A stretch of DNA of 64,000 bases, from the NCBI GenBank assembly GCA_017427065.1, contig JAFRTL010000005.1, positions 62,001-126,000 of the forward strand, in the 5' to 3' direction. Source of the DNA: Bacteroidaceae bacterium. Lineage in GTDB: Bacteria > Bacteroidota > Bacteroidia > Bacteroidales > Bacteroidaceae. How positions within the stretch are numbered: the stretch's first letter is position 1; each line of letters starts with the position of its first letter. A program made the translations under genes and the position numbers. The notes under the pieces are model-generated. The model did no database searches, was not told the origin of the DNA, and saw nothing but the letters and a program-made list of their open reading frames with translations. Shown in pieces: positions 32,687 to 46,393 of this stretch.

Positions 32687-33160
32687 ATGAACTTCGTTTT
32701 TGACAATGCCAATAAGAATGATATAGACGAACTTATTCGCCTAAGACTGGCTTTTATTACTGAAGATTCAGGTGCATTATCAAGTCGTCAAGAGCAATGC
32801 ATAGAAGAGCAACTTCGAGATTATTTTAATCGGAAACTGAAGAAAGAGCTCATCGCATTCGTAGCAAGAGATGAGGAACGCATCGTTGCTGTTGCCTACC
32901 TGCTTTTGATGGAAATGCCTGCAAATGCAAGGCTTCAGAATGGTTTATATGGGGAGGTTTTGAATGTATATACGCTGCCAGAATTTAGAGGAAAAGGCTT
33001 ATGTACCACGTTGATGCAGCATCTTATAGAGTATGGAAAGAAGTGTGGATTAGGATGCATTGACCTCAGTGCCACTGAGAATGGTTATCCCATCTATGCA
33101 AAACTGGGATTTAAGGAAAAGGTGCAGAATTATAAGGACATGCGGCTTGTTTTTCAATAA
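32687..33160 (+). CDS. GNAT family N-acetyltransferase
   Basis: A 157-residue single-domain GNAT. The acetyl-CoA loop is in LPEFRGKGLCTTLMQHLIEYGKKCG (R-G-K-G, about residues 104-110) preceded by the beta-4 strand YGEVLNVYT. The acceptor substrate is unknown. The next gene, another GNAT, starts 7 bp later, though the two share little similarity. Confidence 0.9.
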   Translation: MNFVFDNANKNDIDELIRLRLAFITEDSGALSSRQEQCIEEQLRDYFNRKLKKELIAFVARDEERIVAVAYLLLMEMPANARLQNGLYGEVLNVYTLPEFRGKGLCTTLMQHLIEYGKKCGLGCIDLSATENGYPIYAKLGFKEKVQNYKDMRLVFQ

Positions 33161-33167
33161 AACTACT

Positions 33168-33755
33168 ATGGAAATCAAAGCGTTCAACCCTGAAGATATC
33201 CCCACTCTTGCAAAAAGAGTATCGGAGATTTGGAAATTCAACGAATCTCCAGAGTTTACACGCGTGTTCTGCGAATATCTGGTGCGCTGTAATTACTACA
33301 CGCCTCAGCTTTCCTTGAAGATAGTGGATGAAGAAGGGTTGCAAGCCATTGCATTTGGCTGTATGCCAGAAGAAAAGAACGATGCTGAGGCATGGCTGCA
33401 AGAACAACTCAAAAGCGTTTCGCCAGAAGTGGGGAAATACATCGTGCGCAGTACCAACTATGCCAAACGCACGGAAGCTAAACTTCTGAAACTGATGGGA
33501 TCACAGCCTCATGCTGCCAAACTCTCGTTTTTCTTTAGTCGCAAACCTGGCTATGGCACACTGGTTTTGGAGCATCTTGTGAAAAAACTCAAACAAGAAG
33601 GTGTGAAATGGCTTTATCTCTGGACAGATAGTTGGTGCAATTGGCAGTATTATCCCCACCATGGTTATGAGCAGATAGGTAAAGGCATCCTACCAGAATT
33701 CAGTTCCGAAGATGAAAAGTATTATTATTATCTGTTTCGTAAGGAGATTGGATAA
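33168..33755 (+). CDS. GNAT family N-acetyltransferase (intact parent of the 46394 remnant)
   Basis: The ATG at 33168 gives 195 residues. Core recognition is by the C-terminal half: KPGYGTLVLEHLVKKL (acetyl-CoA loop), then the aromatic stretch LYLWTDSWCNWQYYPHHGYE. A longer in-frame ORF from 33060 overlaps the previous GNAT gene and is rejected. The last 170 bases (33588-33757) recur at 46394-46563 with 155 identical positions and no gaps, marking the left edge of an accessory block. Confidence 0.88.
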   Translation: MEIKAFNPEDIPTLAKRVSEIWKFNESPEFTRVFCEYLVRCNYYTPQLSLKIVDEEGLQAIAFGCMPEEKNDAEAWLQEQLKSVSPEVGKYIVRSTNYAKRTEAKLLKLMGSQPHAAKLSFFFSRKPGYGTLVLEHLVKKLKQEGVKWLYLWTDSWCNWQYYPHHGYEQIGKGILPEFSSEDEKYYYYLFRKEIG

Positions 33756-33788
33756 TACCATATAATAGTTAAAAAACGAACTAAATAC

Positions 33789-33819
33789 TTGTTATTAACC
33801 CAATTAATCGTAACTTTGC
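33789..33819 (+). promoter_or_regulatory. Promoter of the channel/CHASE2/caspase operon
   Basis: TTG at 33789-33791 and TAACTTTGC at 33811-33819, 19 bp apart, match the Bacteroidetes consensus; the first ATG of the operon is 45 bp downstream. Confidence 0.65.
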
Positions 33820-33863
33820 AGAATGCGGTCAACCATATGTTTATATAAAACTTTTATGAGTTT

Positions 33864-34652
33864 ATGAACATTAGGAAGAAAATATACAATCTGATAGGAC
33901 CTAATAGTTTCGATAACGATAACATTTGGTCCTCGATTTATCATTGGGTGATGTTCATCGCAATCCTGATAAGCATTATACCATTGATGTTTCGTAGTCA
34001 GCCGCATTATTTCTGGTATTTCGATGTCATTCCTGCCATTCTCTTCATAATTGACTATATTCTCAGATGGATGACTGCAGACTTAAGTCTGAAAATGGGA
34101 TGGAAATCATTCTTGGTGTATCCATTTACACCAATGGCCATTATCGACTTACTGTCTATCTTGCCTTCTGCCCATTTGCTGAATCCAGCATTCAAGACTA
34201 CCCGTATGGTACGACTGCTGCGCATCGTACGCGTTATCAAATTTGTACGCTACTTTGAGCCTTTGGATATCATCTCCACAGTGATTCGCAAGCAACGACG
34301 TATTCTTTGTACAGTAGCGTCACTTGCCGTATTCTATACTTTTATCACTGCACTGATCATGTTCAATGCCGAGGAGGAAATCAACCCCGAAACTGGCGAA
34401 TACTTGTTCAGTTCCTTTTTTGATGCACTCTATTGGGCAGCATGCACACTGACAACAGTGGGTTATGGAGACCTTTATCCTATATCAGATTTAGGACGTC
34501 TTATCAGTATGATATCAGCTTTTGTGGGTATTGCTATTATTGCCTTGCCTTCTGGTGTCATCACTGCAGGTTATCTTGAAGAGTTGAAGATAAAGCGCGG
34601 ACAGAAAGAGGCGAAAAAGAATAACAAACAACAGACTGACCAACAACTATGA
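33864..34652 (+). CDS. Voltage-gated-type potassium channel
   Basis: A 262-residue six-helix channel subunit. The S4 voltage-sensor-like segment carries arginines spaced by three (R114, R117, R120, R123 in TRMVRLLRIVRVIKF), and the pore loop holds the K+ selectivity filter TVGYGD at residues 198-203, followed by S6 with VGIAIIALPSGVITAGY. A short, charged cytoplasmic tail (KRGQKEAKKNNKQQ) follows; no RCK/TrkA domain is present. It presumably forms a tetramer in the inner membrane. It heads a six-gene operon and overlaps the CHASE2 gene by an ATGA junction, so the two products are probably made in concert. Confidence 0.92.
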   Translation: MNIRKKIYNLIGPNSFDNDNIWSSIYHWVMFIAILISIIPLMFRSQPHYFWYFDVIPAILFIIDYILRWMTADLSLKMGWKSFLVYPFTPMAIIDLLSILPSAHLLNPAFKTTRMVRLLRIVRVIKFVRYFEPLDIISTVIRKQRRILCTVASLAVFYTFITALIMFNAEEEINPETGEYLFSSFFDALYWAACTLTTVGYGDLYPISDLGRLISMISAFVGIAIIALPSGVITAGYLEELKIKRGQKEAKKNNKQQTDQQL

Positions 34653-35854
34653 AACTGCTAAACAAAATAAAGAAGTTTTTCCGTGAGAACTTGCATCTCA
34701 TGTTCCATCGAGACCATATCATCGTGGTGTTGTTGGCATGGGCGATTGCGGGTTTTTGGGCAGCCTTTTTTGTTAATTTCTCTATCTTTGACCCTGTAAA
34801 TCGTGCTTTAAGCGATTTCAAGATGACAGACATCTACTTTGCTATTCAACGCATGGGACGCCAAGTAAATTGGAGTAATGACATTGTTTTGATTGATATT
34901 ACCGAACAATACGATCGTGGTGAAATCGCGCAAACCATAGAACAAGTGGCAGCATGCGAACCTAAAACGGTGATGATGGATCTTATCTTTGAGAAAGAAG
35001 GAGAAGACTTTATAGCTAATGGGGAACTTATCAGTGCCATTGACCAAATTCCAGATGCCGTACTCTCCTGCAAACTTATTGCCTCATCTGAAAAGCGTGG
35101 CGTGTTTGTGGACTGTATAAAATCTTTCTTTGAAGATTTTGGTGACTATACTTGGGCCTATAGCAATGTAACGAAAAAAGAGGCGAATTCAAATTTACGT
35201 GATTACACGATGTATCAAAGCTTAGATACAACCACTTATTATTCATTGGCGTATTTATCAGCTTGTCATTATTTAGGCAAACAACCAAAAAAAGAGAGCA
35301 ACAACCAGCGTACTATCATATATTCGGACACAGACTTCCCTGTAGTGCATTTTGATTCTATCATGCAAAACAAAGCACTTATTAAAAATCGTCTTGCCAT
35401 CATAGGAACAATGAATGAGGAAGCAGACATGCATTTCACTCCTATTGGGAAGATGCCAGGAATGAAAACACAGGCCTATGCTGCACATACTTATATGTAC
35501 CATCATAATATTTCGATCATGTCGAATGCTTTATCGTGGATATTTACTGTCATAATCTGTCTTATTGCAGCTTATCTAGGAATGCTCGCTAAATTGAAAT
35601 CACCACGATTCTACATCTATTGGACAAAATTGATATATCTGATTATATGTACTATCATGGCATGGATAGGTTTCATTTGTTTCGTGAAATATGACTATGA
35701 TATCTCATTATTGCTGCCATTATTAGGAGTAGCATTCATGGAACGTGGACGTATCCACTATATGTGGTTTATTGACTATTGTACCATCCATCCTCAATGG
35801 AAGCGGTTGTACAACTTTGCCTCTAAATCTGTTTATTTTAAACCCCCAAAATAA
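34649..35854 (+). CDS. CHASE2-domain membrane sensor without output domain
   Basis: A 401-residue protein: N-terminal helix at about 24-44, an extracytoplasmic CHASE2 domain (about 45-290; NDIVLIDITEQYDRGE, AACEPKTVMMDLIFE and NRLAIIGTMNEEADMHFTPIGKMPGM are typical blocks) and three closing helices (about 291-365), then only a 35-residue cytoplasmic tail. CHASE2 modules normally sense extracellular signals and feed kinase, cyclase or caspase-like domains; here no such domain is fused. The translational coupling with the channel gene and the downstream caspase suggest the output is delivered through partners (inference). Confidence 0.88.
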   Translation: MKLLNKIKKFFRENLHLMFHRDHIIVVLLAWAIAGFWAAFFVNFSIFDPVNRALSDFKMTDIYFAIQRMGRQVNWSNDIVLIDITEQYDRGEIAQTIEQVAACEPKTVMMDLIFEKEGEDFIANGELISAIDQIPDAVLSCKLIASSEKRGVFVDCIKSFFEDFGDYTWAYSNVTKKEANSNLRDYTMYQSLDTTTYYSLAYLSACHYLGKQPKKESNNQRTIIYSDTDFPVVHFDSIMQNKALIKNRLAIIGTMNEEADMHFTPIGKMPGMKTQAYAAHTYMYHHNISIMSNALSWIFTVIICLIAAYLGMLAKLKSPRFYIYWTKLIYLIICTIMAWIGFICFVKYDYDISLLLPLLGVAFMERGRIHYMWFIDYCTIHPQWKRLYNFASKSVYFKPPK

Positions 35855-35868
35855 ATCCTATAAGAAGT

Positions 35869-37599
35869 ATGAAAAAGATATGCTACATTCTTTTACTGTT
35901 GATGATAGGAATACACTCAACTTACGCTCAACAGACAGCAGACGAGTTGCTAAAGCAAGGCGATTCGTTTTATGAGCAAAAGAAATACAAAGAGGCTGTC
36001 GACTGCTATAAGCAAGCTGCTCAACAGGGAAATGTTGAAGCTCAATTCAATTTGGGATATGCTTTGTACAATGGTGAAGGAGTGGATAAAGACTATGCTT
36101 CTGCAGCTATGTGGTTTAAACGTGCTGCCAGGCAGAACTTTGCCAAAGCCCAATACAATCTTGCATACTGCTATATGAATGGTCGTGGAGTTCCAACCGA
36201 TTATGACAAGGCACTGAGGTACCTAACAGATGCTGCAAATAACGGAAACCAAAATGCTCAGCTTACCATGGCAGAATGCTATGAGAAAGGTGTACTGACC
36301 ATACAAGACCAACGATTAAGCCAACTTTGGAAAGATAAGGCTGCAGGCAAGTATAGTGGGGTTATAGAATCTCCTGAATTGGAAGAGATTGCCCAAGCAA
36401 ATCCTACACCAATCACCACTGAATCCAGGGAAGAAGACTTGGATCCAAATTCTGAAATTGTGATTGATCTTGGAGAACCAGAAGTTGCACAGAATACTCC
36501 TGCTAAACCTACAACTCCTGCACAACCAACTCAACAGGCATCACAAGCATCATCTACAAGAGTAGTGCGCGCCACACCTCCAGAGGTAAAGATTCTTTAT
36601 CCTGAAGATCAGAGTTTCTTCCATACTGAAACTATCAAACTGAAATATCAGTTATTGGCACAAGGATTGGAAAACGAAACGAAGATAACCGTGATGGTTG
36701 ATGGACAAAAACAACCTACTGACCGTGCTGTTCGTGCTGCTAATACGATTGACGTTGATCTTCCTAATCGCGACTGTACAGTAACTATTTATGCACAGAA
36801 TGAGAATGGAAACAGCGAACCTACCTCTATCCGTCTCATTAGAGAAAGTCTGCCTACACAACTACCTAGGTTATTTGCCATTTGTTTAGGTGTAGGTGAC
36901 TATAACGACCCTCAATTACCAAAACTTAAATACACAACCAAGGATGCTCAAGATTTTGCAAATGCTCTTATGACCAAGAAAGGTTTGCCATATCAAGAGG
37001 TACAAGTTAAAGTACTTACAGATCAAGAGTGTACCCGTGATGACTTCTTTGAAGCCATGGAATGGTTGAAACAAGAAGCCTCGCCTAATGATATTTGTGT
37101 ATTTTTCTATGCTGGACATGGTTTCCGGGACGAAAAAGACCGTTTCTATTTTATGAACTACGGTAGTAGCACAAGTAAACTATATAATTGTTTCAGCAGT
37201 AATGATTTTAGAACTGCCTGCGAAGACATCAACAGCAAGTTCATTGTACTTGTAGATGCCTGCTATTCTGGTGCTTTGATGGGCGGAGATCGCTCTGCTG
37301 CAACTTCACACTTCGTTGAACAATTACGTCGTACAAAGAATGGCATGGTGATGTATGCATCAAGTGCCAGCGATACCAAATCAAAAGAGAATGAAGAGTG
37401 GAAAAACGGAGCTTTCACCAAGGCGCTTTGTGAGGCATTTAACGGTGCCGCACGTACGCCTGAAGATGAAGGTCTCTCTACGCAGCAACTTGACCAATAT
37501 CTCTACAAAGAAGTACGAAAACTGACTGATTATAAACAAACTCCAATATTTATGAACCCAAATGGGATGGAACCATTTTACATCTTTACATATGAATAA
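35869..37599 (+). CDS. Secreted caspase-like (C14) protease with Sel1 repeats
   Basis: A 576-residue exported protein: signal peptide (MKKICYILLLLMIGIHSTYAQ), a TPR/Sel1 array (about 25-165; AQFNLGYALYNGEGVDKDY, AQYNLAYCYMNGRGV), a Pro/Thr/Gln linker (about 205-232), an Ig-like strand-rich segment (about 235-325), and a caspase p20-like domain from about 332. The catalytic dyad is visible: His417 in FYAGHG and Cys465 in VDACYSG. It is therefore likely an active periplasmic or surface clan CD peptidase. Signals it responds to and its substrates are unknown. Confidence 0.92.
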   Translation: MKKICYILLLLMIGIHSTYAQQTADELLKQGDSFYEQKKYKEAVDCYKQAAQQGNVEAQFNLGYALYNGEGVDKDYASAAMWFKRAARQNFAKAQYNLAYCYMNGRGVPTDYDKALRYLTDAANNGNQNAQLTMAECYEKGVLTIQDQRLSQLWKDKAAGKYSGVIESPELEEIAQANPTPITTESREEDLDPNSEIVIDLGEPEVAQNTPAKPTTPAQPTQQASQASSTRVVRATPPEVKILYPEDQSFFHTETIKLKYQLLAQGLENETKITVMVDGQKQPTDRAVRAANTIDVDLPNRDCTVTIYAQNENGNSEPTSIRLIRESLPTQLPRLFAICLGVGDYNDPQLPKLKYTTKDAQDFANALMTKKGLPYQEVQVKVLTDQECTRDDFFEAMEWLKQEASPNDICVFFYAGHGFRDEKDRFYFMNYGSSTSKLYNCFSSNDFRTACEDINSKFIVLVDACYSGALMGGDRSAATSHFVEQLRRTKNGMVMYASSASDTKSKENEEWKNGAFTKALCEAFNGAARTPEDEGLSTQQLDQYLYKEVRKLTDYKQTPIFMNPNGMEPFYIFTYE

Positions 37600-38500
37600 T
37601 AATATCAATTTGAAAAGATGGCTTATGGCCTTGATGTTAGCTTTACCTATAAGTGTATTTGCTGACGATTATTTAGTATACTCAGTTGTTGGAAGTGCAA
37701 AACTCTCACAAGGAGGTAAGGAGGTTGGTTTGCAACCAAGTCAGAGCCTCACTTCCAGTTCAAGACTGATTATTGGTGACGAAAGTGCTGTAACGGTACT
37801 AGATGAAACAAACAGTAAGATGTACTCTTTCACAAAAGTAGGGAGCTCTACTGTTAGCGAACTTGTTGCTACTGCTAATGAGCCAAAGAGTCTTTCGAAG
37901 CAGTACCTCAGTTACATGGTTAAACAGATCTTCTCTAAAGAAAGCAAGAATCTGTCACACCCAAATACTTATATGCAGTCAACAGCCACTTCATATCGTG
38001 CTACATCTACTGATTCATTATTACTAAACAAGATCAGCAACATGTTCCCAAGTGGTGTTCCTGTAGAAAGCAGTGTTATTCAACCACAACAACTTGTCAG
38101 TTCAGATCTTGACGTGCGATTTGAATTGATTAACGCGACAACAGGACTCCCTATTAATCGCGAGGTTGACGTTAATACCAGTTGCTACATCCGTGTTACA
38201 AATGACACGCAAGAGCCTCTGTATGTTAATGTCTTAGACATTGATACTGCTGGTAATAAATATCTCGTGCTACCTGTGGATGAAGCAGCCATATGTGCGC
38301 ACCTATTAGTGCCAGCACAGAGTACTGTGTCTTTTAAATCAGAGCCTTTTGAGTTTACTGAGCCGAAATCAAAGGAAACTTTCTTGCTTATTGCTACTGA
38401 AGAGCCTGTAGATTTCAGCATTCTGATGAGTCCAATTCAGGGAAATGGTGGAAAAGAGTTGAAATCGGGCATTTATCGTTTATTCTACGAAACGAAATAA
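37592..38500 (+). CDS. DUF4384-domain secreted protein
   Basis: The ATG at 37592 overlaps the end of the caspase gene (ATGAATAA) and gives 302 residues with a signal peptide ending ISVFADD. The N-terminal part (about 25-95) resembles a FecR-like/SH3-like beta domain (YSVVGSAKLSQGGKEVGLQPSQSL ... VTVLDETNSKMY), and the C-terminal part contains the DUF4384 pattern (CYIRVTNDTQEPLYVNVLDID ... KYLVLPVDE), a module often found with caspases. It is probably a periplasmic partner of the protease. Confidence 0.8.
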   Translation: MNNNINLKRWLMALMLALPISVFADDYLVYSVVGSAKLSQGGKEVGLQPSQSLTSSSRLIIGDESAVTVLDETNSKMYSFTKVGSSTVSELVATANEPKSLSKQYLSYMVKQIFSKESKNLSHPNTYMQSTATSYRATSTDSLLLNKISNMFPSGVPVESSVIQPQQLVSSDLDVRFELINATTGLPINREVDVNTSCYIRVTNDTQEPLYVNVLDIDTAGNKYLVLPVDEAAICAHLLVPAQSTVSFKSEPFEFTEPKSKETFLLIATEEPVDFSILMSPIQGNGGKELKSGIYRLFYETK

Positions 38501-38513
38501 ATAAAGAACCGTC

Positions 38514-39197
38514 ATGAATAAAAAGGTCTTCATACACTTTTGTGCAGTACTCATTCTGAGCACTGGTACCATCTTTGCACAAGAACGTGACAAGAAGGTT
38601 GCTGACGACCTACTTTATGAACAGCTTTGTGCCAATAATACGACGGAAAATTATCATGCTCCTTTTACAGTATCGGCGCCGAGGTTGAAAAATACAAAAG
38701 AAAAAGGCATTTTCTTACTGCAAGGAGACACTTTCCAAATCCGTTCGCTCTCTACTGATTGCTATGTACGCAAACATAATAGCGAGTATGTTCCGATTTT
38801 TGATTCTAAATACCCTATGGAATCATTTATCTCGTTATTGCTGAATCATGTCAATAAAAATAATCTGATCATTAGCATTAATCAGCATCTTTATGGGGGG
38901 GCTAAAAAAGTGCCTCCAATGCCTATGCAGAACATATATGATATGCTATCACGTAACATGAATGCGTATTGCAGTGTAACTGAAGTGAATAAAGATTCTA
39001 TGAAAGCATTACTTGTCTTTCATCACCCAAAAATAGACTTCATCCACATGTTTATTGTCACCGTACCTACCAATCAATTATTCAAAAATGGTGGTACGAT
39101 TACTGCAGAACTGTATGGCAATATTCCACAAAAGAATGTAAAGTCACTCTTCTCTAATTATAAACAAGCAGATGCACAATATCCTGTTGAATACTAA
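38514..39197 (+). CDS. Secreted protein of unknown function
   Basis: A 227-residue protein with a signal peptide (residues 1-22, cleavage after FA-Q). The mature part is mixed alpha/beta with a central stretch around YPMESFISLLLNHVNKN and a final beta-rich region; no family is recognised. It starts 13 bp after the DUF4384 gene and 18 bp before the next and so belongs to the caspase operon. Confidence 0.72.
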   Translation: MNKKVFIHFCAVLILSTGTIFAQERDKKVADDLLYEQLCANNTTENYHAPFTVSAPRLKNTKEKGIFLLQGDTFQIRSLSTDCYVRKHNSEYVPIFDSKYPMESFISLLLNHVNKNNLIISINQHLYGGAKKVPPMPMQNIYDMLSRNMNAYCSVTEVNKDSMKALLVFHHPKIDFIHMFIVTVPTNQLFKNGGTITAELYGNIPQKNVKSLFSNYKQADAQYPVEY

Positions 39198-39215
39198 TTA
39201 AAATGTAAAGATAAA

Positions 39216-40211
39216 ATGAAAACTTTTAGACTTAAACAATTGATAATAGCATGGCTTTTGGCAATCGTTAGCATGCCTGTCTTTGCCGATGGTCCTACCT
39301 TCAAAATAGCAGATGGGGCCGTTGATGCTGTCGTCAAGGAACATATGGAGACTAATGTCAATGCAATGATAGCATTATTCAAGCAAGCTGCAGACGATCA
39401 ACAAGAAAAGATAAAATTGCCAAAAGAGAATTTTACCCAACAGGCTATTGATGACATCCAAGACATGTGGAAAGCCAGCGCTATGAGCTGCCCTCCAATG
39501 GATATTAGAAGTCGATGCTTGAGGACCTCTTCTGGCTATCAGGTTCGTGGAATTCCTATTGATTTAGTGGAAGCAGATCCAGAAGAATCTCGCCAGGAGT
39601 TAACCATCGACTTCACTTCTGATGGTAAAATCAACGGTGTATCAATCTCAATAGATTTACATCGATATGAGGAAATCATGGCTGAGAAGTCTAGTGATCT
39701 GGATTATGAACGTCGCCAGATTATTGTTGACTTTGTTGAGAATTTCCGCACTGCATACAACCGTAAAGATTTACCACTGCTTACAAGTGTTTATTCTGAT
39801 AAGGCTTTGATTATTACTGGTCGTGTCATTAAAGAGAAACCAAACAGCGAACTTGATCGCCTGACACTTAATAACAATAAGGTGGTATATACCAAACAAA
39901 CTAAGCAGGAGTATCTCACTAATCTCGCACGTGTATTTAAGAATACTAAATATATCAACGTGAAGTTTGATGAGATTGAAGTAGTTCAACATCCTAAATA
40001 CGATGATATATATGGCGTGACACTGAAACAGGATTGGCATACGGATCGCTATAGCGATGAAGGCTATCTTTTCTTAATGATTGACTTCAGAGATGAAAAT
40101 AATCCTTTAATTCAGGTTCGCACATGGCAACCATACAAGAGTTCTGATGGTCAAGTTGTTACTAAACGTGAAGATGTTTACCACTTAGGTTCTTTCAGAA
40201 TTGTAAGATAA
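39216..40211 (+). CDS. Secreted protein with NTF2/SnoaL-like C-terminal domain
   Basis: A 331-residue protein with signal peptide (cleavage near VFADG). Residues about 25-165 are of unknown fold; from about 170 (RRQIIVDFVENFRTAYNRKDLPLLTSVYSDKALII ... LTNLARVFKNTKYINVKFDEIEVVQHPKYDDIYGVTLKQDW) the pattern is that of an NTF2-like/nuclear transport factor 2 domain. Last gene of the channel-CHASE2-caspase operon, followed by a strong hairpin terminator. Confidence 0.78.
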   Translation: MKTFRLKQLIIAWLLAIVSMPVFADGPTFKIADGAVDAVVKEHMETNVNAMIALFKQAADDQQEKIKLPKENFTQQAIDDIQDMWKASAMSCPPMDIRSRCLRTSSGYQVRGIPIDLVEADPEESRQELTIDFTSDGKINGVSISIDLHRYEEIMAEKSSDLDYERRQIIVDFVENFRTAYNRKDLPLLTSVYSDKALIITGRVIKEKPNSELDRLTLNNNKVVYTKQTKQEYLTNLARVFKNTKYINVKFDEIEVVQHPKYDDIYGVTLKQDWHTDRYSDEGYLFLMIDFRDENNPLIQVRTWQPYKSSDGQVVTKREDVYHLGSFRIVR

Positions 40212-40233
40212 AGATAGTATTAAAATAGAAAAA

Positions 40234-40265
40234 TGGGGATGGCTAACCATCCCCACTTCTTTTTT
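40234..40265. terminator. Strong bidirectional terminator
   Basis: Perfect 9-bp stem TGGGGATGG (40234-40242) / CCATCCCCA (40247-40255) with CTAA loop, a T-tract to the right and an A-tract to the left. It serves both the caspase operon and the convergent TPR-barrel gene. Confidence 0.9.
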
Positions 40266-40281
40266 ATAAATTAGACGAATG

Positions 40282-41652
40282 TTAGAAAGCAAAACCTATA
40301 CCAAAGCTAACTACACTCTTACCCATGAAATCCTGCAATGCATTATTCAAAGCAAAGCGATAATGGTAGCTGGCTCTCACTGCGAAATAACTGTATTTAA
40401 AGGCCAAACCTACTTCTGGAGTGATGGCAATAGCAGCATTGAGCTTCTGGCCATCATCCTTCTGTATATCAAGAATGTCAGCCTCTGGAGTAGGATAACC
40501 ATGCTTGTCAGGATGTGAGTTCTTGTCTATCTTTGCATAGTCACCATAATAACCCTTAACTGTTACACCAGGACCAAATGTCGCCCAAATTGGGAGTTTG
40601 CCAATACGTTTTGTCCATCCTATGCCAAAGTTGGCTTCTGGATGATCTGGTATAGCATTAGAGTTGTTGCTCTGCATAGCACTCAAAAGCTTTGAGTTGA
40701 TATTCAAATGAATGAAAATACCACCCTTTGTGTTATTATAACGACCATAATGAATACCAATAGGAGCATCATCCATCCACTCATACATAATCACGCTGGC
40801 ATGCTCTTCCTTAGCAGTAAGATAATTACCTATACTATTCAGTCGTTCTGTAGCTGTCTTTGCTTGTTCACAACCATTATCTACCACACGCTGATACAGT
40901 GTACGAGCCTTCTCATAAAGCTTATTGTCAAAATAAGCCTCTGCCTGTTTGAATGCCACAGCGCATTCAGAAGTAAATTGTTCCTGGCATTCGCGCAGTT
41001 TTGAGGTCGCATAAGCATCATAGGAGTTTATACGCACTATATTAGAGAAGACCTCTGCTGCTGCGGAGTAGTCGAGCATACGATACAAAATGTCAGCATC
41101 TTCGCGAAGTTTAATAAGCGAGTCCACTCTAATAATGTTCATGTTATTCTCCAGCGTATCACAATCCGAACACTGTTTAGCCACATTGAACTGGTTAAGT
41201 GCCTCTTGATAGTTGGCATTCTGTATTTCCCTCACACCCATATTTCTATGCGTACGATAACAACCCTGATCCACCAAGGAGTTTGGATCAGAAATCTTGA
41301 ATGTACGCAATTGTTTAGGCTCCAAATCCAAAGGCAATTCTACAGGATTATAACCAGGTGCAGAAATAGTAATGACACGACCACGATAGCGAGGACCAGC
41401 AGGAAACTCAATGAAGTAAATGGAGTCTGTACCTTGAATCTCAGTACTGAACAAGTCTACACTCTTATCCATAGTGGAAGAGAAACTCAGTGGGATGGTA
41501 TGGTTACAACGAATCTCCACAGCTGCCTGGTCGCCCGAACTGGAATATACGGCATTGGCTTGCGAGAGGTCTTCCACCTCAAGCACCCCTTGTGCTCTTG
41601 CCATAAATGCAATGGCACCAAGAATCAGTGTTAGTAATATTTTCTTATACAT
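40282..41652 (-). CDS. TPR-containing outer-membrane-barrel-like protein
   Basis: A 456-residue protein with a signal peptide (MYKKILLTLILGAIAFMARAQ). A beta-rich first part (about 25-135), a TPR-like helical region (about 140-270; YQEALNQFNVAKQCSDC, YSAAAEVFSNIVRI, YEKARTLYQRVVDNGC) and a C-terminal alternating beta pattern ending VSFGIGFAF, whose terminal Phe is typical of BAM-inserted outer-membrane barrels. The barrel part (about 280-456) is short, about eight strands. No family name is certain. It faces the caspase operon and may be functionally linked to it through a shared terminator only; this is inference. Confidence 0.78.
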   Translation of the reverse strand: MYKKILLTLILGAIAFMARAQGVLEVEDLSQANAVYSSSGDQAAVEIRCNHTIPLSFSSTMDKSVDLFSTEIQGTDSIYFIEFPAGPRYRGRVITISAPGYNPVELPLDLEPKQLRTFKISDPNSLVDQGCYRTHRNMGVREIQNANYQEALNQFNVAKQCSDCDTLENNMNIIRVDSLIKLREDADILYRMLDYSAAAEVFSNIVRINSYDAYATSKLRECQEQFTSECAVAFKQAEAYFDNKLYEKARTLYQRVVDNGCEQAKTATERLNSIGNYLTAKEEHASVIMYEWMDDAPIGIHYGRYNNTKGGIFIHLNINSKLLSAMQSNNSNAIPDHPEANFGIGWTKRIGKLPIWATFGPGVTVKGYYGDYAKIDKNSHPDKHGYPTPEADILDIQKDDGQKLNAAIAITPEVGLAFKYSYFAVRASYHYRFALNNALQDFMGKSVVSFGIGFAF

Positions 41653-41724
41653 ATTTTTTATTATTTAATTCAAAGCTCTATTATATTTCATGTATATAGC
41701 ATCTATGATAATCCCAAATTCATC
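41653..41724. other. AT-rich upstream region of the TPR-barrel gene
   Basis: About 70 bp upstream of 41652 with no clear -33/-7 pair; TATAATAG on the minus strand is the only candidate. Together with 41725-41974 it forms the 322-bp gap that holds the degraded end of the fimbrillin operon. Confidence 0.4.
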
Positions 41725-41900
41725 TCATTCTGTGAAAGTAGTGTTCAGATCATCCAAAGAAGCTCTAATCATGGCTTCCTCTTGATCTACCCTGATAGAC
41801 GGATGATACCAGCCTATACTTATACTTCTAGGTCTTGAGTACAAGCACAAAAGGGAAACAACGCCAAAATGACTACTGCTATGATAGTATTTTCTTTCAT
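41725..41900 (-). pseudogene. Frameshifted small lipoprotein remnant
   Basis: Reading minus-strand from an ATG at 41900 gives a lipoprotein signal peptide (MKENTIIAVVILALFPFCAC) and a stop after 26 codons. Skipping two bases within the tandem TATACT duplication (41815-41826) opens a second frame that continues SIGWYHPSIRVDQEEAMI... for about 31 further residues to a TGA at 41725-41727. The restored protein would be about 57 residues. It lies 11 bp after the read-through end of the preceding fimbrillin gene, as the last member of that operon. Confidence 0.6.
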
Positions 41901-41974
41901 CAGTTCTAATATTAATTGTTAGGACTCCATGGCTTCACAGAATTATTAGCGTCACCATCAACAGTACCTAAATG

Positions 41975-42841
41975 TTACTCATTATTAACCGTAATCCTAT
42001 ATGTATAGGTACTACCTGATTGCAAATCTGCCTCTCCATCTGAAGGTACAAAATAGAACAACCCTAAATTAGTATGTGTATCTATGCAAATGAATCGAGT
42101 TCCACTATAATCTTTAGGTATCAACAAAGCAGAGAAAGTAGCACTTAATCCGTCTTCTGCAGTCGCATCATGAAACATTGTAACACCACCATTGGGATAA
42201 TTACTAAAATTTTCCCATGTACCATAATTATCATTACCAGTAGGAGCACTAAATTCTCCAGTTAAAGGAACAATGTCAATAAGGTTCCCCTCTGCATCGT
42301 GATCATATCCTAAATATACAGAAACAACATTATTAGGTTCGACTGCTGTTTTGAATTCTAATTGCACAATGACCCTTGCCATCTGGTGATAGAAAGTGAG
42401 ACGAGTGTTCGATGGTGTCAATGTTCCCTTGGCATAAAGCAGATCATGCCTAGTATACCCAACATTCTCTGGACTTTGATCTTTAGGAATAGTAATTCCC
42501 GTCAAAGGCACTGCATTGGTGAAACCACCTAACGACCATGCTGTTACTTCAACACTATCAAAATTAGGAGACCATCTGAAAGGATCACTACTACCAAAAG
42601 TCGTTAATTCCCCTGTTTCTGCATCTTTAATGTAATATATCTTTATCTCATCTCCTATTTTCACAGCAACCTCATCACCAACATTCCATTGGTTATCAAC
42701 AGTAGAACGTGTCATAGGCATATCAGCATAGAGGACAAGCGGTTGTCCTCCTAAAGCTGACATGTCTTCCTCACTACTGCAAGCCAACAAAGTAACTGCT
42801 GCAAGTAGTAAAGAAATATGTATGAAAAATCTACTGTTCAT
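41975..42841 (-). CDS. Fimbrillin family lipoprotein, probably truncated by a nonsense codon
   Basis: A 288-residue lipoprotein (lipobox LLACS, Cys21) with the Mfa-like/fimbrillin two-domain beta-sandwich pattern: MTRSTVDNQWNVGDEVAVKI, the RLTFYHQMARVIVQLEF strand block and STYTYRITVNNE. After the TAA, 20 more in-frame codons (41974-41915) encode HLGTVDGDANNSVKPWSPNN before the next TAA at 41914-41912. Sister proteins upstream end with the comparable SIDDW and QIEDW segments, so the last strand has likely been cut off. Confidence 0.85.
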   Translation of the reverse strand: MNSRFFIHISLLLAAVTLLACSSEEDMSALGGQPLVLYADMPMTRSTVDNQWNVGDEVAVKIGDEIKIYYIKDAETGELTTFGSSDPFRWSPNFDSVEVTAWSLGGFTNAVPLTGITIPKDQSPENVGYTRHDLLYAKGTLTPSNTRLTFYHQMARVIVQLEFKTAVEPNNVVSVYLGYDHDAEGNLIDIVPLTGEFSAPTGNDNYGTWENFSNYPNGGVTMFHDATAEDGLSATFSALLIPKDYSGTRFICIDTHTNLGLFYFVPSDGEADLQSGSTYTYRITVNNE

Positions 42842-42849
42842 ATTGACTA

Positions 42850-43803
42850 TTAATTAGTTGCATCTCCAGTAATTGTAGCACCTGTTACCCAGTCGTCAAT
42901 AGAGGTGGTTGCCGTTATTTCATATCTATTAACTGTAAGGTTATATGTATATACCTTCCCTGATTCAAATTCCATTACTTCCGTTTCAGGAAGTGAATAA
43001 GTCAACTCTGTATAACTAGGATCATTCCAATGTAAAACAACCTGAATAAACTCAGTACCGCCTTCAATAGGTTGTGGAATGATGATGGCACTATGACTCA
43101 AAGCATCTCCAGAAATGGCAGCGCTATTATCCGGCAAATTGCCTGCAATAATGTTTATTACATCTGATTGAGCTCCACCCTCTGGGTCACCAATAGCAGC
43201 ACCTTGTACATTGAAAGTTGTAGAAGGCATAGTATTTAAAACAAGAACTGTTGCATTGACAAGTGAATCTGCATTGAGGCCTGCACCAATTGTTAAATTG
43301 ATATTAATTTTAGAAAGCATGTGTTTAAATGTCACAGCAACTGCACCTGCTTGACGACTCACAGGATTAGCGGCAGCACCTAACATCAAATCACTGGCCT
43401 TATAATTGTCATCATCACTTTGGTCATATTGGACCTCAAAAGAATAAGGATCAGAAATGTTAAAGGCCTTGTTATTAGGATAAACACCAAAAATATTCAC
43501 ATCATTTCCAGAAGTGGGATATCGTGGTGTATCCATATATGTATTCAATCCTCCATTACCATCTGCAGTATATTCAATCGGTTGTGGATAATAATAACCT
43601 GAAGACGAAACATTTTCATTAATGAAAATATCCACTTCCTCACCTGCATCAAATTGAGTGGATTGCAATTCTTGAGTAGCACGAGTTTGCAACTGAGTCG
43701 TAGTACACAAACGAATCTCTCCGTTCCAATTATCTATCTCACCATCATTGCTGCATGCGACAAATAGTAGCGCAGAAACAGCTAAAATCATATATTTCTT
43801 CAT
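42850..43803 (-). CDS. Fimbrillin family lipoprotein
   Basis: A 317-residue lipoprotein, lipobox LLFVAC (Cys17). Early mature region has TTTQLQTRATQEL and EEVDIFINENV; the core strand block is AVTFKHMLSKININLTIG; the C-terminus is VYTYNLTVNRYEITATTSIDDWVTG, the usual last strand with the DW motif. This is the Mfa-like_1 type, thought to polymerise into type V pili by donor-strand exchange after protease cleavage. It is the middle of three consecutive fimbrillin-like genes, and its presence as a lipoprotein precursor fits RgpA-dependent or similar processing (family knowledge). Confidence 0.88.
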   Translation of the reverse strand: MKKYMILAVSALLFVACSNDGEIDNWNGEIRLCTTTQLQTRATQELQSTQFDAGEEVDIFINENVSSSGYYYPQPIEYTADGNGGLNTYMDTPRYPTSGNDVNIFGVYPNNKAFNISDPYSFEVQYDQSDDDNYKASDLMLGAAANPVSRQAGAVAVTFKHMLSKININLTIGAGLNADSLVNATVLVLNTMPSTTFNVQGAAIGDPEGGAQSDVINIIAGNLPDNSAAISGDALSHSAIIIPQPIEGGTEFIQVVLHWNDPSYTELTYSLPETEVMEFESGKVYTYNLTVNRYEITATTSIDDWVTGATITGDATN

Positions 43804-43824
43804 GATAGTATGTATTATAAATTA

Positions 43825-44724
43825 TTACTCAGCATTAACATCCTCTCCACTGCCATTGCCAGCAGCCCAATCTTCAATCTGTGAAGTTACAATTATACTA
43901 GTCTTGCCAACGTTTACATTATAGATATACCTATTACCCATCTCGAAACTCTGTGAATTGGCAGAATTGCTTATTGCCCAAGAATAAGTGCCAACCTCAG
44001 GTAATTCAAACTGAAGAAGCATTCCTTCTGTTGTAGAGGCAGGCAGAACGATCGCTTCACTAGTAGTACCATCTGCAGAAGTCATAAAAGAGAGTGTTGA
44101 TACTTCTGTGCCTGTTACGTCTACATCTGCATCAGTTAAAACGTCACAAGTGGCAGTAGTATATTGGTTGGAAAGAGTAACATTCATATTAGCTAGTTGT
44201 TCTGCCGTAATGCCATCACCAGAACGGATATTCAGTTGAATCTTAACTAATTTATGTGAGAAAACAAATGCTACATTTGGCTGAGTCTTATTGACATTAT
44301 TAACAGCTGGAGACACCATAAAATCAATTGCCTCTTGATCTGTCTGATCGCTCACATCTATGCTATACGTTCCATCACAACCAGTAACGTACGGATAATA
44401 AGCGAGTACACTACGAGAACTGCCATCACTTGGCAACCAAACGACATCATCTTCTGTAGCAGCCGTGAAATTACCATCACCATCACTCGTGATATATTGC
44501 ATGTTGGCATATTCTGCAGCTGTTCCATTCATAGAGAAAACACCTATAGCATCGTTTGCTGTCCATGCACTATTGACCGCACGTGTCTGAATACCTGCAG
44601 ATACATTAATCTTAACAGGAGGCCCATAATCGATGACAGCATCCTGTACTTCATCGTTCTCGCAAGCAGTCAAAAAAGTAGCTGCAGAGAACACAGTTGC
44701 TATGAATGCAAAAAACTTATTCAT
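43825..44724 (-). CDS. Fimbrillin family lipoprotein
   Basis: A 299-residue lipoprotein with signal peptide MNKFFAFIATVFSAATFLTAC (Cys21). The pattern is again Mfa-like: IQTRAVNSAWTANDAIGVFSM, PNVAFVFSHKLVKIQLNIRSG, RYIYNVNVGKTSIIVTSQIEDWAAG. The processing-region arginine (QTRAV) close to the N-terminus matches the position where many fimbrillins are cut. First fimbrillin in the operon after the DUF5119 gene, hence a likely main subunit or tip protein; which of the three is the shaft subunit cannot be told from sequence. Confidence 0.88.
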   Translation of the reverse strand: MNKFFAFIATVFSAATFLTACENDEVQDAVIDYGPPVKINVSAGIQTRAVNSAWTANDAIGVFSMNGTAAEYANMQYITSDGDGNFTAATEDDVVWLPSDGSSRSVLAYYPYVTGCDGTYSIDVSDQTDQEAIDFMVSPAVNNVNKTQPNVAFVFSHKLVKIQLNIRSGDGITAEQLANMNVTLSNQYTTATCDVLTDADVDVTGTEVSTLSFMTSADGTTSEAIVLPASTTEGMLLQFELPEVGTYSWAISNSANSQSFEMGNRYIYNVNVGKTSIIVTSQIEDWAAGNGSGEDVNAE

Positions 44725-44761
44725 ATTGCTTTGTTTTTATTATTATCAAATAACGTGGTTT

Positions 44762-45655
44762 CTATCTAATTATAATATAACCATTATCAACATCATGCCA
44801 ATCGATAATAGAAGCTCCCATACCACCTATTCCCTTCACAAAGAAATCAAACTCAGCAAGAGTAGTATCTGGTTTTAGGATAGACCTAAAAGTCTGAATA
44901 GAACCATCCGCATAAGTCACATTAATAGCCAATTGTCCATCTTCAACATCTAGAAGATCAACAAAACGTACAACAGCCTGATATACGGGTGTCATCTTAC
45001 CAATGAGTTCCTCATCCTGTCCATCATACTCCTTATAAATAAGTGTCATAGGCATCAAAATCTCACCCACTTCAGTTCCTTTTTCAAGTGTCAGCAGATT
45101 CACAGAATCTATGACACCATTCAATGTACCAGTAATGTTTGAAACAAGGTTTTCATCACCTGGCCACATATAGATATTTATTACCAACTCATGAATAAGC
45201 TGGCGCATTTTGAGATCCACTTGTGACGTACTATTTCTAAGAATCTTTACATTCTCAACCTGAGAAGAATAAAGGAAATCAGGCATTCTCAAATATGTTC
45301 CATCACTTTCCTTATCTACTGTAGCATTAAAATTCTCATCAATAGTCACCCCCTTAGGCCTATTATAGGCGAATACGCTATAGTCGCCTGCTAAGATTCT
45401 TCGCAAGTTATAAGTAGCATTATTCGTCTCATACTTCTTTCCATTCAAGTCGATCAGATACCCATTTTCTGGCGGAGTAATAATATCTGTTTCACTCCAA
45501 ATGGTATTTACTATCAATGCGGCTTGTTTCCAAGCATTGGGATCGTAAAAGTCTTCGTCTTCTTCTGGTAATAAGTACAATTTATCCTTGACACACGATG
45601 TTGCCATCGTGAGAACTAATAAGGCTAATATAATATGATAAGTATACCGCTTCAT
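44762..45655 (-). CDS. DUF5119 family lipoprotein (FimB/Mfa2-type anchor)
   Basis: A 297-residue lipoprotein with lipobox ATSC (Cys21) in MKRYTYHIILALLVLTMATSC. The arrangement YLLPEEDEDFYDPNAWKQAALIVNTIWSE near the start, LRRILAGDYSVFAYNRP, the S-S-Q-V-E-N-V segment and the closing GIGGMGASIIDWHDVDNGYIIIR are typical of DUF5119 proteins that accompany fimbrillins, related to the FimB/Mfa2 anchor family. Placed second in the operon after the DUF3575 gene, it likely anchors or nucleates the fibre at the outer membrane. Confidence 0.82.
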   Translation of the reverse strand: MKRYTYHIILALLVLTMATSCVKDKLYLLPEEDEDFYDPNAWKQAALIVNTIWSETDIITPPENGYLIDLNGKKYETNNATYNLRRILAGDYSVFAYNRPKGVTIDENFNATVDKESDGTYLRMPDFLYSSQVENVKILRNSTSQVDLKMRQLIHELVINIYMWPGDENLVSNITGTLNGVIDSVNLLTLEKGTEVGEILMPMTLIYKEYDGQDEELIGKMTPVYQAVVRFVDLLDVEDGQLAINVTYADGSIQTFRSILKPDTTLAEFDFFVKGIGGMGASIIDWHDVDNGYIIIR

Positions 45656-45667
45656 GTTCTATCAAGG

Positions 45668-46255
45668 TTATAAAATATTCATGACCAGCGCTATAGAAAG
45701 GTGATTAATGCCCCAATAGTTCTTATCTCCTCTACCTGTAAGATATCGAGTTCCATTAAGAACTTTATAATTCTCATATGAAGCATGGGTACAACCCAAT
45801 CCACCTGTGAAATCTACATAATACCTTTTATTACGTAGATGCAAACGATATCCAGCAGTGATACCACCACCAATAATATCACCTTGCTTAGCATGTGCAG
45901 AAGTAAAACCATAATTAAACTGACCTCCATACACACGAAGGCCCACATACCAAGGAAGTTCAGTAGACATATAGCCCATGTAGTGCCTAACTTCCCCAGC
46001 AAATTCTTTCAAAGCATATCGACGGGTATTATTTTTGAAACTCCATCTAGTCCATGTAGCAGATGCAAGTACGCTCCAATCTTTTTTCACCTGCCACTCA
46101 ACTCCTATATCAGGCGTTATGGTTGCCCATCTCAAAAGATTGGCACGTAAAAAGACATGTTCATCCTCTTGAGCATGAAGACTGCACAAAGAAGGCACAA
46201 TCATAGCGAGAATTAAAAGCACCCTAATTATTGTATGTTTGCAAACGTACTTCAT
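45668..46255 (-). CDS. DUF3575 family protein (outer-membrane barrel-like)
   Basis: The ATG at 46255 gives 195 residues with a signal peptide (MKYVCKHTIIRVLLILAMIVPSLCSLHAQ); an upstream in-frame ATG (46306) would precede the signal peptide and is rejected. The mature part shows FLRANLLRWATITPDIGVEWQVKKDWSV, GEVRHYMG and YGGQFNYGF blocks and ends in alternating strands (INHLSIALVMNIL), the DUF3575 pattern. It heads the fimbrillin operon, a position DUF3575 commonly occupies. A -7-like TATCTTTAA is found on the minus strand at 46278-46270. Confidence 0.85.
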   Translation of the reverse strand: MKYVCKHTIIRVLLILAMIVPSLCSLHAQEDEHVFLRANLLRWATITPDIGVEWQVKKDWSVLASATWTRWSFKNNTRRYALKEFAGEVRHYMGYMSTELPWYVGLRVYGGQFNYGFTSAHAKQGDIIGGGITAGYRLHLRNKRYYVDFTGGLGCTHASYENYKVLNGTRYLTGRGDKNYWGINHLSIALVMNIL

Positions 46256-46393
46256 ACCATAGTTGATGATTAAAGATAGACAAATGTAACGATTTTTTAG
46301 CATCATTAAACAAATGCCTATGGCATTTAATATTTTTTAACAAGGGAATACCCTTTACTATCCCTACGCTCTCAAAAATACATATATAATGTT
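46256..46393. other. Region between fimbrillin operon and GNAT remnant
   Basis: Contains a perfect 7-bp hairpin AAATGCC (46312-46318) / GGCATTT (46322-46328) with a 3-base loop and a following T-rich stretch (AATATTTTTT), which looks like a terminator although no plus-strand gene precedes it. Likely promoter region of the fimbrillin operon on the minus strand. Confidence 0.5.

What the first reader, a model, noticed from the sequence alone, without database searches (positions are those of the whole stretch)
33864..40211. Operon joining a K+ channel, an output-less CHASE2 sensor, a secreted caspase and partners
Six genes with ATGA couplings or gaps of 14-18 bp run from one promoter to one strong terminator: voltage-gated-type channel, CHASE2 protein with no cytoplasmic output domain, signal-peptide-bearing caspase with intact His417/Cys465, DUF4384 protein, and two secreted unknowns. 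CHASE2 and caspase domains are fused or neighbouring in other phyla, but a coupled ion channel and periplasmic placement of the protease is unusual. It may be a stress- or contact-triggered system acting across the envelope.
Basis: partly seen in the sequence, partly recalled or inferred. Interest (0 to 1): 0.72.

Follow-up and report, generated by a model that had tools for sequence, protein, structure and literature searches.

The report
Envelope receptor with a periplasmic caspase
A rumen bacterium carries a gene set that seems to place a caspase-like protein cutter between its two cell membranes, next to a membrane sensor, a potassium channel and an outer-membrane protein, and relatives across the phylum keep the sensor while exchanging the cutter.

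Summary
The six genes are real and in the stated order: voltage-gated-type K+ channel, CHASE2 protein without cytoplasmic output, signal-peptide caspase with intact His417/Cys465, DUF4384-like protein, two secreted unknowns. Eight close relatives keep all six in order; a ninth lacks only the channel. A seventh gene, a probable outer-membrane barrel (40282-41652, minus), lies beside them in 10 of 10 loci. The operon joins parts with separate histories: (A) a phylum-wide CHASE2 + secreted-partner core, usually with a cysteine protease; (B) an envelope module (genes 5-6-7) that also occurs without the caspase; (C) a channel that is usually free-standing. In 62 CHASE2 loci the partner is found in 57, a caspase in 31, CHAT in 6, a transglutaminase-like protein in 11, and none of the three in 17. 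All 40 caspase sequences keep His and Cys; 37 have a hydrophobic N-terminal segment. Several pairs of parts occur as fusions. Best reading: a receptor whose output is regulated proteolysis inside the periplasm. Signal, substrate and channel role are unknown. Exported caspases are the common pattern in these loci; the channel is the odd part. Structure prediction could not be run.

The parts
33789..33818 (+). Bacteroidales-type promoter (TTG ... TAACTTTG)
   Evidence: Read; TANNTTTG box 46-65 bases upstream of the channel in 9 of 10 operon loci with a channel. Consensus recalled.
33864..34652 (+). Gene 1: voltage-gated-type K+ channel (six-TM by family), 262 aa, S4 RMVRLLRIVRVIKFVR, filter TTVGYGD, short cytoplasmic ends
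   Evidence: Pfam Ion_trans 1.5e-27; motifs; best PDB matches are KCNQ and Kv channels
34649..35854 (+). Gene 2: CHASE2 inner-membrane protein, 401 aa, no cytoplasmic output domain
   Evidence: Pfam CHASE2 2e-18 and nothing else; hydrophobic segments 24-42, 295-313, 328-346, a weaker fourth by eye
35869..37599 (+). Gene 3: secreted Sel1-repeat + caspase (Peptidase_C14), 576 aa, His417/Cys465
   Evidence: Pfam; dyad and N-terminal hydrophobic segment in homologues
37592..38500 (+). Gene 4: secreted CHASE2 partner: N-terminal partner domain + DUF4384-like C-terminus, 302 aa
   Evidence: Pfam DUF4384 just under cut-off; partner domain with CHASE2 in 57 of 62 loci
38514..39197 (+). Gene 5: secreted protein of unknown fold, 227 aa (module B)
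   Evidence: Signal peptide by eye; homologues of 374-376 aa precede gene 6 in 4 loci without caspase
39216..40211 (+). Gene 6: secreted protein with NTF2-like (Cds6_C-like) C-terminus, 331 aa (module B)
   Evidence: Pfam 26.6 bits, cut-off 27; gene 5-6-7 order in 4 of 4 loci without caspase
40234..40255 (.). Terminator shared by the operon and convergent gene 7
   Evidence: found on both strands
40282..41652 (-). Gene 7: TPR + probable outer-membrane beta-barrel protein, 456 aa, ends in Phe (barrel inferred, no Pfam barrel hit)
   Evidence: Adjacent to gene 6 in 10 of 10 loci that reach past gene 6, convergent in 7, co-directional in 3; next to genes 5-6 in 4 loci without caspase

Best explanation
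It is an envelope-spanning receptor-protease unit whose output is proteolysis inside the periplasm. The CHASE2 protein (inner membrane, sensor domain in the periplasm) and its secreted partner (gene 4) form the conserved receptor core. They dock and restrain the exported Sel1-caspase (gene 3). Genes 5, 6 and the outer-membrane barrel (gene 7) bring the outer-membrane end of the signal. When the cue comes, the caspase is released or activated and cuts an envelope protein after a basic residue. CHASE2 needs no cytoplasmic domain because protease and sensor are on the same side of the membrane. In the rumen Prevotella branch a K+ channel, recruited into the first position, gives the core a route into the cell (change of K+ conductance or membrane voltage). 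Shown by computation: gene content, order, co-occurrence, fusions, export signals, catalytic residues, selection. Inferred: physical complex, restraint, activation, cleavage preference, substrate, channel role.
For: Partner domain found in 57 of 62 CHASE2 loci; on the same strand within 5 kb, C14 in 31, CHAT in 6, transglutaminase-like in 11, any of the three in 45 of 62. In 393 genomes of the order the 16 with a strong partner match are all among the 17 with CHASE2. C14 within about 5 kb of CHASE2 in 17 of 34 genomes, 0.21 expected (C14 counts). Fusions: CHASE2-C14 (L108), CHASE2-partner (L086), partner-C14-outer-membrane barrel in one secreted protein (L093), partner-transglutaminase-like (L022, L023), C14-DUF4384 (L109, L110, L111, L120). 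In L086 a further hydrophobic segment (408-426) stands at the joint; in L108 only a short stretch, seen by eye; with the usual 1+3 CHASE2 topology this would keep the added domain outside. His and Cys kept in 40 of 40 C14 sequences; hydrophobic N-terminal segment in 37 of 40. Signal peptides by eye in 12 of 12 transglutaminase-like rows and in 4 of 6 CHAT loci. The protease label changes at least 11 times on the CHASE2 tree. Genes 5-6-7 form their own operon elsewhere, headed by a secreted Sel1 protein without caspase. Precedent: in S. meliloti CHASE2 cyclases respond to a ligand sensed through the outer-membrane barrel NsrA (PMC13001267, passages).
Against: 17 of 62 loci have none of the three protease types nearby (two of them are contig ends), so the CHASE2-partner core does not always use one; several of these genomes have no C14 match at all. 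No physical interaction, cleavage or export was measured. No structure could be predicted. A protease near a receptor may be an independent secreted enzyme. The cyanobacterial C14-CHASE2 fusion is predicted to hold its caspase in the cytoplasm (PMC3501461, passages), so the topology is not universal. The channel role rests on gene adjacency in one clade plus L024, and close channels stand alone elsewhere. Genes 5-6-7 also work without a caspase or CHASE2 beside them.
Confidence: 0.5

Rival explanations
1. Surface-protein maturation: the exported caspase is the Arg/Lys-specific processing protease for the Mfa-like fimbrillins encoded next door, as gingipains (another caspase-fold family; relation recalled) are for P. 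gingivalis fimbriae; CHASE2 and the partner time this processing.
For: An Mfa-like fimbrillin cluster (window 41975-46306, minus) lies next to the operon in 8 of 10 loci. The draft genome's only three Mfa_like_1 genes lie beside its only C14 gene. 27 of 27 adjacent fimbrillins have a [TS]R[ASTV] site near the N-terminus. FimA of P. gingivalis needs Arg- and Lys-specific gingipains for maturation (PMC3647041, passages); orthocaspases cut after positively charged residues (PMC6426788, start of abstract in the listing).
Against: The same site is in 23 of 30 fimbrillin loci drawn from 13 genomes (28 of the 30 from genomes other than the window's; at least two rows were plainly the wrong ORF), so it is generic. 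L011 and L018 have the operon without the fimbrillin cluster. None of the other CHASE2 loci annotated gave a fimbrillin hit.
Confidence: 0.17
2. Regulated cell death or phage defence: the caspase and channel kill or depolarise the cell when the envelope is attacked.
For: Caspases and ion channels are used in known death systems (general knowledge); swapping of effectors across the CHASE2 tree resembles conflict systems.
Against: PADLOC gives only its generic caspase model (37.4 bits for gene 3) and no system for the six proteins or for six proteins of related loci; no relative of the CHASE2 protein on IMG/VR viral contigs; an exported protease is unlike the cytoplasmic defence caspases I know of (recalled). 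Flanking genes were not scanned for defence systems.
Confidence: 0.1
3. Envelope housekeeping: the unit is a constitutive maintenance complex of outer-membrane biogenesis and the caspase trims misassembled proteins; CHASE2 is only an anchor.
For: Module B occurs without caspase, in two of four loci with a 1017-1022-aa protein with an N-terminal membrane segment (by eye) and a transglutaminase-like protein; partner proteins of the long form carry TPR and weak Ig-like matches.
Against: Patchy distribution: the caspase (E<=1e-40) in 2 of 399 family genomes and CHASE2 in 4 of 100 relatives, own genome included, unlike a housekeeping machine; CHASE2 is a known sensory domain.
Confidence: 0.15
4. 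Chance neighbourhood: co-transcribed but functionally unrelated genes.
For: The channel and module B each occur separately elsewhere.
Against: Order held while CHASE2 has diverged to 70-72% and gene 5 to 53-56% identity; the core is phylum-wide with fusions; C14 near CHASE2 in 17 genomes against 0.21 expected.
Confidence: 0.03

Closest known systems
C14-CHASE2 fusion protein of Trichodesmium erythraeum (PMC3501461, passages)
   Same: Caspase domain tied to a CHASE2 sensor
   Different: There the caspase is predicted to face the cytoplasm and CHASE2 the outside, in one protein; here the caspase is a separate exported protein on the sensor's side, with a partner protein
CHASE2 adenylate/guanylate cyclases CyaD1/CyaD2/CyaK with outer-membrane NsrA, Sinorhizobium meliloti (PMC13001267, passages)
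   Same: Outer-membrane barrel plus CHASE2 inner-membrane protein
   Different: Output is cytoplasmic cAMP; no protease named in the passages; here CHASE2 has no cytoplasmic enzyme
mtxA - CHASE2 cyclase gene pair of magnetotactic bacteria (PMC4439547, passages; PDB 4Z29)
   Same: Secreted 313-aa protein with an N-terminal part, Ig-like fold and TPR, encoded next to CHASE2: same layout as the long Bacteroidota partner
   Different: Sequence similarity not significant (E 1.6); cyclase output
BiofilmReg operon, Burkholderia (PMC5192318, passages)
   Same: Secreted LysM-FecR protein encoded next to a CHASE2 protein
   Different: CHASE2 histidine kinase with response regulator; FecR relation of our partner tested and not met
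Gingipain-dependent fimbrillin maturation, P. gingivalis (PMC3647041, passages)
   Same: Exported Arg/Lys-specific protease needed for fimbrillin maturation
   Different: Peptidase C25 without CHASE2 (recalled)

Membership tests
Orthocaspase / Peptidase_C14 | Pfam PF00656 over cut-off | tested here: met
   77.9 bits against 21.4
Orthocaspase / Peptidase_C14 | His/Cys dyad | tested here: met
   His417/Cys465; 40 of 40 sequences keep both, duplicate loci L006 and L008 included
Orthocaspase / Peptidase_C14 | Proteolysis after Arg/Lys | not testable with these tools
   needs purified protein
CHASE2 receptor | CHASE2 domain flanked by TM segments | tested here: met
   67.3 bits against 26.3; three strong hydrophobic segments, fourth weak
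CHASE2 receptor | Cytoplasmic enzymatic output (kinase, cyclase) | tested here: not met
   Short tail only, no other Pfam family at E 0.1; so a CHASE2-domain protein, not a CHASE2 receptor enzyme
Voltage-gated K+ channel | Ion_trans domain, S4 charges and TVGYGD filter | tested here: met
Voltage-gated K+ channel | K+ conductance gated by voltage | not testable with these tools
   needs electrophysiology
FecR (gene 4 N-terminus) | Pfam FecR or profile similarity | tested here: not met
   No FecR among the families listed for 19 members (22 of 22 families shown) and for 43 members (25 of 27 shown); hhalign 3.9% against true FecR domains, though the best of 12 profiles
DUF4384 (gene 4 C-terminus) | PF14326 over cut-off | tested here: inconclusive
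   26.1 against 27 bits; 2 of 19 partner proteins matched it, best E 9.5e-06
MtxA-type CHASE2 partner | Significant sequence similarity to MtxA | tested here: inconclusive
   4z29 at E 1.6 with the N-domain profile, not among the best 60 of 82 shown with the long profile; layout agrees
EACC1-associated caspase | NF047832 over cut-off | tested here: not met
   102.9 against 140 bits
Known anti-phage defence system | PADLOC system genes among the six | tested here: not met
   only the generic caspase model at 37.4 bits and a PtuA match at 12.8 bits, both on gene 3

The most novel reading that the evidence does not exclude
Bacteroidota have a phylum-wide class of receptors in which CHASE2 plus a dedicated secreted partner controls an exchangeable cysteine protease (caspase, CHAT or transglutaminase-like) inside the periplasm: signalling by regulated extracytoplasmic proteolysis, with the signal entering through an outer-membrane barrel and, in rumen Prevotella, a voltage-gated K+ channel serving as the link to the cytoplasm.
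Probability: 0.35. Interest if true: 0.85.

Novelty: new variant of a known kind. Interest (0 to 1): 0.63.

Why it matters
CHASE2 is known as the outside half of kinases and cyclases. CHASE2 proteins with no inside half have no obvious way to act. The co-occurrence found here gives one that can be tested: the output is a protease on the same side of the membrane. It would also give bacterial caspases, mostly discussed as cytoplasmic death or defence proteases (general knowledge), a widespread exported role, and names carriers with strain names that are presumably in culture (Bacteroides faecis MAJ27 with a caspase, Xylanibacter muris and Prevotellamassilia timonensis with CHAT). In the literature searches no paper describing such an operon was seen in the listings; some listings were partial (20 of 22 papers, 15 of 9,987, 40 of 47), and subscription papers and preprints were not covered.

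Tried and rejected
FecR label for the partner: it read like FecR by eye, but Pfam showed no FecR hit and profile comparison gave 3.9%; dropped. A first profile run used some domains on the wrong strand and was redone with 28 of 30 domains. Gene 7 against PEGA-barrel proteins or the L093 barrel, and gene 5 against LPP20-like proteins: no support. Phage-borne origin: 41 pattern matches in IMG/VR, none a relative. Mobile origin by composition: operon G+C 39.3% against 43.7% for the window, but within its range. RNA element: no Rfam match over 33000-42000. Specificity of the TR-A site for the operon: not specific. PDB search with the partner profiles: no hit below E 0.01 apart from TPR proteins. 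Structure prediction of genes 4 and 5 was never accepted, so no fold search was made.

Rows dropped before counts: duplicates L006, L007, L008, L103, and L121 (no CHASE2 ORF); L032 left out of the tree (CHASE2 broken into two ORFs; left as it is; its longer piece counts as a locus); G075 and G284 left out of the chance calculation (partial match, contig end). For that calculation the C14 counts, genome sizes and the list of 17 genomes were typed by hand, with one C14 added for G434 (the L108 fusion, missed). In the tree, loci with two protease types (L022, L025, L110) were labelled C14.
Full report
OBSERVATION. The window lies in an incomplete 2.5 Mb draft genome (27 contigs, 83% complete); the nearest named contigs come, by their titles, from rumen and omasum Prevotella/Bacteroidaceae assemblies. 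The six ORFs are present in the stated order and strand. Gene 1 (33864-34652) is a voltage-gated-type K+ channel with S4 charges and a TTVGYGD filter. Gene 2 (34649-35854) has a CHASE2 domain and only a short tail after its last hydrophobic segment. Gene 4 (37592-38500) ends in a DUF4384-like domain just under the Pfam cut-off. Genes 5 and 6 have signal peptides by eye. Spacing is 4- and 8-base overlaps and gaps of 13-18 bases. There is a TAACTTTG box 53 bases before gene 1 and a terminator found on both strands at 40234-40255.

CONSERVATION OF THE OPERON. A scan of GTDB contigs with a three-sequence CHASE2 alignment gave 24 loci, L009-L032. The window and eight of them (L009-L015, L017) carry the complete gene 1 to gene 6 order; L018 has genes 2-6 but no channel; L016 ends with its contig after genes 1 and 2; the other 14 (L019-L032) have other arrangements, described below. 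Of the eight, L009 is 97% identical in CHASE2; the other seven are 70-72% identical in CHASE2, 65-69% in gene 4 and 53-56% in gene 5. dN/dS between the window and L009 is 0.014-0.081 for all seven genes. The operon is rare: a caspase at E<=1e-40 in 2 of 399 genomes of the family and CHASE2 in 4 of 100 relatives, the window's genome included in both. The genome has a single C14 match.

A SEVENTH GENE. The 456-aa gene at 40282-41652 (minus) lies next to gene 6 in 10 of 10 loci whose contig reaches past gene 6 (the window, L009-L015, L017, L018), convergent in seven and co-directional in three, two of them with a 23-base gap. It has TPR matches and a C-terminal Phe; an outer-membrane barrel is inferred, not shown. 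Of 100 relatives 8 match it: the window's genome and its near-twin, four at 31-35% identity, and two weak matches that look like TPR noise. The loci of these four were fetched. In 4 of 4, genes 5, 6 and 7 stand together on one strand, directly behind a secreted Sel1/TPR protein without caspase domain, and no C14, CHASE2 or partner was found in the 14-15 kb; two of the four have a transglutaminase-like gene downstream (Pfam run on three of the four Sel1 proteins). The window operon therefore looks like a union of this envelope module with the CHASE2 module.

THE CHASE2 CORE. CHASE2 neighbourhoods were collected, from 393 genomes of the order (17 with a match) and from 395 of the phylum (81 with a match). 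The first set is biased towards close relatives; the others are even draws, but 39 regions were fetched, for short CHASE2 proteins and mainly the better matches; about 730-aa CHASE2 proteins, which may have kinases, were left out. After dropping duplicates and one locus without a CHASE2 ORF, 62 loci were counted. The CHASE2 proteins are 374-494 aa long, apart from two fusions and one broken gene. A domain homologous to the N-terminal half of gene 4 was found in 57: it is the next gene downstream in 37, behind a C14 or transglutaminase-like gene in 17, and otherwise placed in 3. Of the five without, two are contig ends and one (L025) is masked by an overlapping ORF; L100 and L102 lack it. On the same strand within 5 kb, C14 was present in 31, CHAT in 6, a transglutaminase-like family in 11 and any of the three in 45; 17 had none.

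CONTROLS ON THE CORE. In the 393 genomes of the order the 16 with a strong partner match (E<=1e-13) are all among the 17 with CHASE2, and the three genomes with two CHASE2 genes have two partners; the seventeenth has only a partial 36-bit CHASE2 match; in G284 the two lie on different contigs; 11 more genomes had weak partner matches only. The partner model was built partly from these loci, so its absence from the other genomes is the informative part. A C14 gene lay within about 5 kb of CHASE2 in 17 of 34 genomes, against 0.21 expected from C14 numbers and genome sizes; the most seen in 200,000 simulations was 4. On the CHASE2 tree of 61 rows the label C14, CHAT, transglutaminase-like or none changes at least 11 times (shuffled mean 25.3); well-supported branches alone force 5 changes for C14 and 3 each for the other two.

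EXPORT AND CATALYSIS. All 40 C14 sequences found in these loci (duplicate copies in L006 and L008 and some that are not next to CHASE2 included) keep His and Cys. 37 have a strongly hydrophobic segment in the first 60 residues, which in L108 is the CHASE2 membrane segment; two of the other three are cut by the end of the fetched region and the third (L106) was called from a start inside CHASE2. The CHAT proteins keep ATHG and SAC motifs, with a signal peptide at the called start in 4 of 6 loci (L110 is cut, L020 is called from a far upstream start). The 12 transglutaminase-like rows keep a CEDR motif and all start with a signal peptide by eye; their name is by motif, Pfam gave none for those tested.

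FUSIONS. One chain joins CHASE2 and C14 (L108), CHASE2 and partner (L086), partner and C14 with an outer-membrane barrel (L093, Pfam OMP_b-brl_2 28.2 bits against 27), partner and transglutaminase-like (L022, L023), or C14 and DUF4384 (L109, L110, L111, L120; by the session's model, in Pfam under cut-off for L109). In L086 a clear hydrophobic segment stands at the joint; in L108 only a short stretch, seen by eye. With one membrane segment before and three after CHASE2, as described for other CHASE2 proteins, this would put the added domain back outside; the third segment after CHASE2 is weak in several of these proteins. The fusions are indirect evidence that the parts work together.

THE CHANNEL. 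Close channels (51-68% identity) occur in five relatives, with no CHASE2-module gene beside them in the fetched regions. The channels of the operon form one clade (97/99 support); L024, a CHASE2-transglutaminase locus, has its own channel 6 bases behind the last gene. The channel was added to CHASE2 operons at least once and possibly twice; its role is open.

MECHANISM. I propose that CHASE2 and its partner restrain the exported caspase and release it on an envelope cue delivered through genes 5-7. Precedents are the outer-membrane barrel NsrA acting on CHASE2 cyclases (PMC13001267, passages) and the secreted MtxA encoded beside a CHASE2 cyclase, with an N-terminal part, Ig-like and TPR layout like the long partners (PMC4439547, passages). 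Sequence similarity to MtxA is not significant. The main rival is fimbrillin maturation: the fimbrillin cluster is adjacent in 8 of 10 loci and every adjacent fimbrillin has a TR site (27 of 27), but the site is generic (23 of 30).

KNOWN OR NEW. Caspase-CHASE2 fusion is known from Trichodesmium with a caspase predicted to be cytoplasmic, and OmpA genes in metacaspase operons were noted in the same paper (PMC3501461, passages). A CHASE2 gene beside a secreted protein gene is known in Burkholderia (PMC5192318, passages). In the listings no description of a CHASE2-partner-periplasmic protease system in Bacteroidota was seen. I rate it a new variant of a known kind. The largest gaps are the missing structure prediction (not completed) and any experiment.

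Noticed in passing
window 41975-46306 (minus): Mfa-like fimbrillin cluster (three Mfa_like_1, DUF5119, DUF3575) convergent with the operon; these are the only three Mfa_like_1 genes found in this draft genome, beside its only C14 gene.
   Followed up: partly
L017:8704-8788: A tRNA-Leu gene whose last base is the first base of the channel start codon; the promoter boxes lie upstream of the tRNA, so tRNA and operon may be co-transcribed.
   Followed up: no
L190-L193: Operon without caspase: Sel1/TPR protein - gene 5 - gene 6 - gene 7, in L191 and L192 followed by a 1017-1022-aa protein with an N-terminal membrane segment and, further on, a transglutaminase-like protein.
   Followed up: partly
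L088, L089, L095, L096, L098, L101: In one family (f143) CHASE2-partner pairs have none of the three protease types nearby; a Band_7/SPFH protein (Pfam on one, the rest by BLAST cluster) and in four of six a 145-aa protein stand near instead.
   Followed up: partly
L083:2491-3870 (and relatives in L084, L085, L094): Papain-family (C1) protein with a weak DUF4384 match near CHASE2-partner (Pfam on L083 only): a fourth type of cysteine protease in these loci.
   Followed up: partly
L127:6462-9471 (G040): Shortened channel gene (166 aa) beside what looks like an IS21-type transposase pair (read by eye).
   Followed up: no
L032:10139-11121: CHASE2 gene broken into two ORFs in one Prevotella assembly.
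   Followed up: no
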